Made by a program: the position numbers and the translations under genes. Shown here in pieces: positions 34,257-48,960 of a stretch of 50,477 nt of DNA (position 1 is the first letter of the stretch; every line of letters begins with the position of its first letter). The notes beneath the pieces were generated by a model. The model was not told the origin of the DNA and made no database searches. It worked only from the letters and a program-made list of their open reading frames with translations. Source of the stretch: Xenococcus sp. MO_188.B8 (GTDB taxonomy: Bacteria > Cyanobacteriota > Cyanobacteriia > Cyanobacteriales > Xenococcaceae); assembly GCA_030065615.1 (NCBI GenBank), contig JASJDR010000033.1:1-50477 (forward strand). The letters run 5' to 3'.

Positions 34257-35561
34257 ATGATATCTTTAACTTACGAATACAAGTTAAAACCAACCAAAAA
34301 ACAGATTAAAGATATAGAAATGTATCTTGAAGTTTGTCGGGCGGTTTACAACTGGAATCATAGGGAAAGAAAAGATTGGATACAGTCGAGAAAAAGTCCA
34401 ATTTACCAATGTTCAATTGTTCAAGAATATATCATTCCTGCCGATAAACCTTTTCCCAGCTACAATATTCAAGCTAAGAATCTAACTCAATCTAAAAAGC
34501 AATATCCGCATTTAGCACAAGTTCATTCTCAAGTCTTGCAGTCTACTTTAAAAAGACTAGACCAAGCTTGGGATGATTTCTTTAAAGTAGAGGTTCGAGG
34601 CTTCCCTAAATTTAAAAACCAAAATAGATTTAGAAGCTTTGTCTATCCTCAAATTAAAAGTAGTGACTTAAAGAATACTGAAATTAGATTGCCTAAGATT
34701 GGCTGGTTAAGAATTAGGAAATCTCGGGAATATCCCACAGGATTTAACCCTAAGCAACTGAGGATTGTGAGAAAAGCTACGGGCTATTTTGCTCAGATAA
34801 TATTTGTTTCCACCGAATCAGTTCCTGATATTCTACCAGGAGAAACTAGTTTAGGATTGGATGCGGGAATCAGTTCTTTTGTTGCTAGTTCTAGAGGAGA
34901 ATTAATCAAGACTCCAGAGTTTATTTTAATGGCAGCTAGAAAGTTGAAATCACTACAGCGTCGCTTAAAGAATAAAATTAAGGGGTCAAATAATTGGGTA
35001 AAACTGCAAAAGAAAATAGCACAATTACATTTTAAAGTAGCTAATCGTCGGGAGTATTGGCTATACAAACTGGCTCATCATTTTTGCTCGATTACAGACA
35101 ATATCTTTGTCCTAAAGGATACCGCTTCGCATATCGAAGATATTAACTTTAAATCTTGGCAAAAAGGACTATTTGGCAAACAAGTAGGTAATTCAGCAAT
35201 TGGGAAATTCATCAATCAAATACTCCCATTCATCGCTTGGAAAACTGGGGTTTACTATCAGAAAGTAGACAAAGATTTCACCTCGCAAGAATGCCCAAAT
35301 TGTGGATTACCAACTGGGAAAAAAAGCCTCAGCCAAAGAGTTCATAATTGTCAATGTTGTGGTGTAACTCTCGATAGAGATGTTGCGGCGGCAATAGTGA
35401 TAGAGCGACGGGGAAAAATCGCGGTCGGGCAGCCCGTGACTCTTGGTGCGCGTTCCCATGCTGGGGAAACCCCAGCGGGGTCGCACCGCAAAAACACTTG
35501 TGGAGATCGAGGTGCAGGGATCTTGCAACTAACCTTGTTTGATCTAGTAACTGGTCTGTGA
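34257..35561 (+). CDS. tnpB: TnpB, RNA-guided nuclease of an IS605-type element
   Basis: Protein of 434 residues with an N-terminal helix-turn-helix segment (YKLKPTKKQIKDIEMYLEVC), a RuvC-like nuclease and a zinc ribbon (CPNCG at about 347, CQCCG at about 365). Catalytic acids are Asp202 in SLGLDAGISS, Glu294 in EDINF and Asp375 in LDRDVAAA. TnpB proteins use a right-end RNA as guide to cut DNA near the insertion site. Here eight residues (LKDTASHI) are inserted directly before the catalytic Glu by a small repeat, so activity is uncertain. Confidence 0.9.
   Translation: MISLTYEYKLKPTKKQIKDIEMYLEVCRAVYNWNHRERKDWIQSRKSPIYQCSIVQEYIIPADKPFPSYNIQAKNLTQSKKQYPHLAQVHSQVLQSTLKRLDQAWDDFFKVEVRGFPKFKNQNRFRSFVYPQIKSSDLKNTEIRLPKIGWLRIRKSREYPTGFNPKQLRIVRKATGYFAQIIFVSTESVPDILPGETSLGLDAGISSFVASSRGELIKTPEFILMAARKLKSLQRRLKNKIKGSNNWVKLQKKIAQLHFKVANRREYWLYKLAHHFCSITDNIFVLKDTASHIEDINFKSWQKGLFGKQVGNSAIGKFINQILPFIAWKTGVYYQKVDKDFTSQECPNCGLPTGKKSLSQRVHNCQCCGVTLDRDVAAAIVIERRGKIAVGQPVTLGARSHAGETPAGSHRKNTCGDRGAGILQLTLFDLVTGL
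35112..35135 (+). repeat. Small dispersed repeat inserted in frame in tnpB
   Basis: CTAAAGG-A-TACCGCTTCGCAT at 35112-35132 matches 20 of 21 bases of 48850-48870, which lies in non-coding DNA. Removing exactly 24 bases restores DNIFVEDINF, the normal spacing before the TnpB catalytic Glu. Confidence 0.75.
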
Positions 35562-48826: not shown

Positions 48827-48960
48827 CCGAGAGGGGTGCCGCCCTAACCCTAAAGGGTACCGCTTCGCATCTTCGGATAAGGTTCCCTCTCGGGGCGCGT
48901 TCCTTAGCCCAGAACACGGAGCTGGGCTTGTCCCCAGAACACGGAGCTGGGTAAACAGAT
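48827..48960. repeat. GC-rich hairpin block with duplicated stem-loop
   Basis: CCGAGAGGG (48827-48835) pairs with CCCTCTCGG (48885-48893) and encloses the small dispersed repeat shared with tnpB. Just downstream, CCCAGAACACGGAGCTGGG occurs twice in tandem; each copy can fold by CCCAG/CTGGG. The GC content is clearly higher than in the flanks. Confidence 0.75.

What the first reader, a model, noticed from the sequence alone, without database searches (positions are those of the whole stretch)
35103..35150. Small dispersed repeat inserted in frame next to the catalytic Glu of TnpB
TnpB reads DNIFV, then eight extra residues LKDTASHI, then EDINF. Removing 24 bases restores the canonical spacing before the catalytic Glu294. 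The inserted DNA matches 20 of 21 bases of an intergenic copy at 48850-48870. Very small repeats inserting into genes have been described in Nostoc (small dispersed repeats). Here the target is the active site of an RNA-guided nuclease, and the insertion kept the frame, so it may disable or alter TnpB without stopping its synthesis or its guide RNA.
Basis: partly seen in the sequence, partly recalled or inferred. Interest (0 to 1): 0.8.

Follow-up and report, generated by a model that had tools for sequence, protein, structure and literature searches.

The report
Tiny repeat in TnpB's active site
A 24-letter mobile repeat has inserted itself, without shifting the reading frame, right beside a catalytic residue of a DNA-cutting enzyme in a cyanobacterium, and the same repeat sits at exactly the same spot in several other copies of that enzyme.

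Summary
Confirmed and extended. The window's TnpB (34257-35561) carries an exact 24-nt insertion, TCCTAAAGGATACCGCTTCGCATA (35110-35133), two bases before the Glu294 codon. A same-genus copy (91% identical) has the empty site. The 24-mer is a dispersed repeat: 112 copies in this genome (up to 2 mismatches), 871 in 24 of 27 family genomes, none in 73 other genomes of the order. It inserts at G^T, usually TTG^TGG-like. AlphaFold puts Leu286 of the insert where a control TnpB has its catalytic Glu; I infer a nuclease-dead protein, untested. The tree needs three state changes, the fragment not counted. Target preference alone predicts about 0.004-0.06 such insertions. The site thus looks like a real hotspot; whether by targeting, by selection for dead TnpB, or by recombination between TnpBs is open. 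Small dispersed repeats are a known kind (recalled); the recurrent active-site hit appeared in none of the searches made.

The parts
34257..35561 (+). tnpB of an IS200/IS605-type element, 434 aa, carrying the in-frame insert
   Evidence: ORF; HTH_OrfB_IS605, OrfB_IS605 and Cas12f1-like_TNB domains; kin to ISDra2 TnpB; TnpB fold
35110..35133 (+). 24-nt small dispersed repeat TCCTAAAGGATACCGCTTCGCATA, inserted inside the Val codon before Glu294; supplies LKDTASH and one base of Ile
   Evidence: empty site in L063; 95 core copies in the genome
35136..35138 (+). codon of Glu294, the RuvC glutamate displaced by the insert
   Evidence: invariant in the 26-row alignment
34860..34862 (+). codon of Asp202, first RuvC aspartate
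   Evidence: nearly invariant column
35379..35381 (+). codon of Asp375, third RuvC residue
   Evidence: nearly invariant column
48850..48870 (+). intergenic copy of the repeat core, 20 of 21 bases, inside a composite repeat
35445..35489 (+). a second, unrelated 45-bp hairpin repeat inserted in frame near the C-terminus of the same TnpB
   Evidence: absent from G001 and C305 at this place; 32 copies in the genome

Best explanation
A 24-nt mobile repeat, of a small-dispersed-repeat family confined in our sample to the window's cyanobacterial family, inserted at G^T inside the Val codon just before the catalytic Glu of tnpB. Shown: the exact 24-nt gain, the empty site in a sister copy, the dispersed family, and the same insertion at the same nucleotide in several TnpB lineages. 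Predicted: the native beta-strand keeps its register, so Leu286 of the insert takes the place of the catalytic Glu and Glu294 falls into a poorly ordered stretch. Inferred: the protein is still made and mostly folded but cannot cut DNA. The site is occupied far more often than the repeat's local target preference predicts; I think the likeliest cause is repeated insertion at a favoured site, kept because TnpB copies are dispensable.
For: Empty site, exact 24 nt. 95 core copies, 0 in control; family-confined, 24 of 27 genomes against 0 of 73. Preference G in 65 of 75 and T in 59 of 75 unique contexts. Same insertion in C305, L122 and L232; window plus C305 rejected as a clade, p-AU 1.1e-7, three state changes; empty nearest relatives L063 for the window, L010 and L011 for L122. 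Insert identical in window and C305 although their dS is 0.95. Model: strand 282-286 ends on Leu286, 290-310 under pLDDT 50; control strand ends on its Glu267. Three of the four carriers are broken elsewhere: C305 by a TAG, L122 by loss of about 55 N-terminal residues, L232 by stops.
Against: No activity was measured. The model is weakest exactly at the insert. The window copy itself shows no relaxed selection: 5 nonsynonymous and 11 synonymous changes against 7 and 11 on the G001 branch, though the age of the insertion is unknown. The site ranks only 20th of 1389 and 25th of 1249 open sites by target preference, so preference as measured does not explain the recurrence.
Confidence: 0.72

Rival explanations
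1. One insertion spread among TnpB copies by short-patch recombination (or was lost precisely in G001), so the identical site reflects homology and not repeated insertion.
For: All carriers share TTTG|TYGARRATAT around the site; window and C305 live in one genome; a 24-nt loop in a heteroduplex may be repaired apart from nearby mismatches (inference).
Against: Sites within 75 nt group the window with G001 16 times and with C305 3 times, the nearest at -5 with G001. L122 is 43% identical to the window protein and in another genus. If the insert were ancestral to window and C305, the chance of no synonymous difference in it is about 0.007.
Confidence: 0.2
2. Selection for nuclease-dead TnpB: of many insertions, those in the catalytic site are kept because they stop cutting and leave guide-RNA and DNA binding, as in TldR repressors.
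For: In 146 sampled repeat copies, all 3 insertions within the conserved body of a TnpB are at this nucleotide and 3 more are at or past the C-terminal end; preference alone gives the site about 1% of open insertions in the gene. RuvC inactivation without apparent loss of binding is known (PMC13418256, passages).
Against: Three of four carriers are otherwise broken. Other insertions are not at catalytic sites (InsA, CobN). The window branch gives no clear signal. G010 was sampled after its carrier was known.
Confidence: 0.14
3. The insert is tolerated: the strand slips so that HIED replaces FVED and Glu294 still reaches the metal site, giving an active or altered TnpB.
For: Val before the insert and Ile before Glu294 are both kept by the split codon. 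No relaxed selection seen on the window branch. Rickettsial palindromic inserts can leave an enzyme active (PMC2229807, passages).
Against: The model keeps the native register and leaves Glu294 disordered, although the alignment offered it Glu against Glu.
Confidence: 0.12
4. Coincidence: ordinary insertions into a dispensable multicopy gene that happened to fall at one site.
For: TnpB is multicopy (53 matches in this genome) and the site fits the target preference 16-fold over background. The site was noticed before it was counted.
Against: 0.004 to 0.06 insertions expected over 27 genomes; chance of two or more 8e-6 to 0.002. Two random open insertions in one TnpB coincide with chance 0.014-0.016.
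Confidence: 0.06

Closest known systems
Small dispersed repeats (SDR) of Nostoc and relatives (Elhai et al. 2008; recalled, text not held, seen only as a citation in PMC3116915)
   Same: Very short (24 nt here, 21-27 nt recalled), many dispersed copies, some inside AAAAGTC-type heptamer repeats, confined to one cyanobacterial group
   Different: Sequence and host family differ as far as recalled; here exact filled and empty sites and same-nucleotide hits in TnpB, Uma2 and tRNA genes
Rickettsia palindromic elements (PMC2229807, passages read)
   Same: Repeats inserted in frame in protein genes and also in RNA genes
   Different: 105-146 bp with long stem-loops; here 24 nt with only a short possible stem, and a recurrent catalytic-site target
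TldR, TnpB-like nuclease-dead repressors (PMC13418256, passages read)
   Same: TnpB with its RuvC nuclease site inactivated
   Different: There by mutation and with new gene partners; here by a mobile repeat, in a gene still between shared transposon ends, binding not tested

Membership tests
Cyanobacterial small dispersed repeats | Length of about 21-27 nt (recalled) | tested here: met
   Net gain of 24 nt against the empty site
Cyanobacterial small dispersed repeats | Many dispersed copies in one genome | tested here: met
   95 core copies, control 0
Cyanobacterial small dispersed repeats | Found within heptamer tandem repeats (recalled) | tested here: met
   10 of 113 contexts classed as heptamer by simple flank rules
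Cyanobacterial small dispersed repeats | Confined to a coherent group of cyanobacteria (recalled) | tested here: met
   24 of 27 family genomes, 0 of 73 others of the order
Cyanobacterial small dispersed repeats | Movement, perhaps by an RNA intermediate (recalled) | not testable with these tools
   Filled and empty sites show insertion; the route is unknown
TnpB | TnpB domains and fold | tested here: met
   Pfam; Foldseek to ISFba1 and ISDra2 TnpB
TnpB | Working RuvC D-E-D triad | tested here: inconclusive
   Three residues present, but the model does not place Glu294 in the strand
TnpB | Guide RNA at the 3' end and a TnpA partner | not tested
   No guide-RNA or TnpA search was made
TldR | Inactivated RuvC site | tested here: inconclusive
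   Predicted only
TldR | Guide-RNA and DNA binding kept | not testable with these tools
   Needs a bench test
TldR | Stable association with a non-transposon gene | not tested
   Neighbour conservation was not examined; the 3' flank shared with G001 and C305 suggests that it is still a transposon copy

The most novel reading that the evidence does not exclude
A 24-nt mobile repeat repeatedly homes to, or is repeatedly kept at, the catalytic Glu codon of TnpB, as a ready-made in-frame cassette that turns RNA-guided nucleases into nuclease-dead RNA-guided DNA-binding proteins.
Probability: 0.2. Interest if true: 0.88.

Novelty: new variant of a known kind. Interest (0 to 1): 0.64.

Why it matters
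It gives a defined element (24 nt), a defined target (G^T in TTG^TGG-like sites) and matched filled and empty sites, so the question of how such very small repeats move becomes testable. If the recurrence in TnpB is selected, it shows a one-step natural route from RNA-guided nuclease to RNA-guided binder.

Tried and rejected
A long conversion tract from C305 is not supported by the flanks. A pairing or hairpin preference at the insertion sites was sought in 84 contexts against 400 control sites; z stayed within 2.3 over 31 positions, which I take as none. Viral-contig TnpBs could not be fetched by alignment, so DNA patterns were used to gather rows for folding. Fragments C250 and C156 end on either side of the site and cannot be scored. 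Of the 11 matches, 4 are the TnpB site; of the other 7, one is a Uma2 gene, one a TnpB insertion elsewhere (L234), and for 5 I recognised no gene. Two of ten disrupted ORFs gave no Pfam family, L043 and L201. The tree warns of long branches at L122 and L009. Assembly error was considered and thought unlikely, because C305 and the G010 copy carry the insert in other flanks; reads were not seen.

Full report
What is there. The tnpB gene at 34257-35561 encodes 434 residues with HTH_OrfB_IS605, OrfB_IS605 and TNB domains, sequence kinship to ISDra2 TnpB and a TnpB fold. Its RuvC residues are Asp202, Glu294 and Asp375 by alignment; that these are catalytic is knowledge of the family, not a result. 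Before Glu294 stand eight residues, LKDTASHI, that 74 of the 77 scorable TnpB loci lack (89 loci given, 12 without alignment over the site). The relatives in that count are best matches per genome, and L122 was added because it was known to carry the insert.

The insertion is exact. The copy in a genome of the same genus (G001, locus L063, 91% protein identity) has TTTG|TTGAAG where the window has TTTG|24 nt|TCGAAG. The inserted sequence is TCCTAAAGGATACCGCTTCGCATA, 35110-35133. It splits the Val codon G|TT, rebuilds Val upstream (GTC) and gives Ile downstream, and keeps the frame. In this pair no target duplication is visible beyond one ambiguous T.

It is a mobile repeat family. The 19-nt core is present 95 times in the 8.26-Mb genome with up to one mismatch; the reversed-pattern control gives 0. 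Over 100 genomes, the 24-mer with up to two mismatches is in 24 of 27 genomes of the window's family and in 0 of 73 of other families of the order, 871 copies in all (sum). A named contig of that group is from the MAG Xenococcaceae cyanobacterium MO_167.B52; it holds the G010 copy. Of 113 different contexts, 75 were classed as unique, 28 as nested or repetitive and 10 as heptamer by simple flank rules; among the 75 the base before the insert is G in 65 and the base after it is T in 59, with weaker T, T before and G, G after. The repeat splits a tRNA-Lys(CTT) gene of this genome and a tRNA gene of G010 at the same place, just before the T stem. It lies in a DDE_3 transposase, an ORF with an InsA zinc ribbon, a DDE_Tnp_1 transposase, an IS4/5-type transposase, a CobN/Mg-chelatase gene and a sensor-regulator gene. 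In Uma2 genes of two genera, 65% identical, it sits at the same nucleotide.

The TnpB site is hit repeatedly. The same insertion is in the second copy C305 of this genome (82% identity, with an internal TAG), in a TnpB of G010, L122, that lacks about its first 55 residues, and in a TnpB fragment of G010 with stops, L232. A tree of 22 TnpB rows made without the insert rejects window plus C305 as a clade (p-AU 1.1e-7) and needs three changes of state; the fragment L232 and the two contig-end fragments were not scored. The group of window, G001, C250 and C156 without C305 has support 100/99, window plus G001 itself only 80/54. L122's nearest relatives, L010 and L011 of this genome, are empty. The 24 nt are identical in window and C305 although the genes differ at dS 0.95; inherited from a common ancestor, no synonymous difference would be expected with chance about 0.007. 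Three changes could also be two gains and a loss; I find a loss less likely for that reason. Sites within 75 nt group the window with G001 16 times and with C305 3 times, which speaks against a long conversion tract but does not exclude short-patch repair.

Is it more than target preference? With a position matrix trained on 81 contexts without the TnpB site, the site is 16 times better than background, but only 20th of 1389 open sites in one TnpB and 25th of 1249 in another. With 871 copies and 132 site matches (a pattern count that includes some matches that are not TnpB), 0.004 to 0.06 insertions are expected, depending on how much of the genome tolerates the repeat; four places are seen, at least two and probably more of them independent. 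Among 146 repeat copies, 6 lie in or at TnpB: three at this nucleotide, three at or past the C-terminal end. That sample is 79 copies of G000 out of the list of 95, and 67 of other genomes; most of the latter are from G010, chosen after its carrier was known. The calculation is post hoc, and the matrix treats positions as independent.

What it does. AlphaFold on 26 rows (mean pLDDT 82.5) ends the strand 282-286 on Leu286, an inserted residue, and leaves 290-310 under pLDDT 50. In the control, a viral-contig TnpB without the insert (24 rows, mean 89.1), the strand 263-267 ends on the Glu. I infer loss of the Glu from the metal site, hence no DNA cleavage, with most of the protein folded. Selection data do not decide it: the window branch has 5 nonsynonymous and 11 synonymous changes, G001's 7 and 11; dN/dS between them is 0.20 against 0.08-0.13 for the 11 other pairs compared.

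Known or new. Small dispersed repeats in Nostoc are recalled from Elhai et al. 2008, which is not held and was seen only as a citation in PMC3116915 (passages). In-frame inserts of a larger kind in protein and RNA genes of Rickettsia are described in PMC2229807 (passages). Inactivation of TnpB into RNA-guided repressors is described in PMC13418256 (passages). My searches for small dispersed repeats in cyanobacteria, cyanobacterial repeats, nuclease-dead or inactive TnpB, TldR, and TnpB with cyanobacteria listed no paper whose title or abstract start reports a repeat inserted at a TnpB catalytic site; apart from the passages named, I saw listings only.

Noticed in passing
window 35445-35489: A 45-bp repeat with fixed ends and a variable hairpin core whose stem arms change together; 32 exact-end copies in the genome, control 0, of which 8 lie in or within 100 bp of TnpB matches. 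Here it is in frame near the TnpB C-terminus.
   Followed up: partly
L063 about 1909-1960: The empty-site TnpB of G001 carries a related 51-bp insert in frame at another place, in the other orientation.
   Followed up: no
L139 (reverse strand, 979) and L220: The 24-nt repeat splits a tRNA-Lys(CTT) gene and a tRNA gene of another genome at the same place, just before the T stem; joined flanks are read as tRNAs by ARAGORN.
   Followed up: partly
L093 and L228: The repeat sits at the same nucleotide of Uma2 genes, after ELMSP, in two genera (65% protein identity).
   Followed up: partly
L225: The repeat lies in frame in a CobN/magnesium-chelatase gene of G007, a host gene.
   Followed up: no
L005 (C250) and L013 (C156): Two contigs with 91% TnpB halves end on either side of the insertion site, so the state of that copy is hidden in an assembly gap.
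   Followed up: no
L234: In a TnpB of another clade (G025) the repeat is inserted in frame upstream of the first RuvC aspartate, again at TTTG^T.
   Followed up: no
L237: One viral contig of IMG/VR holds the exact repeat, inside an open frame.
   Followed up: no
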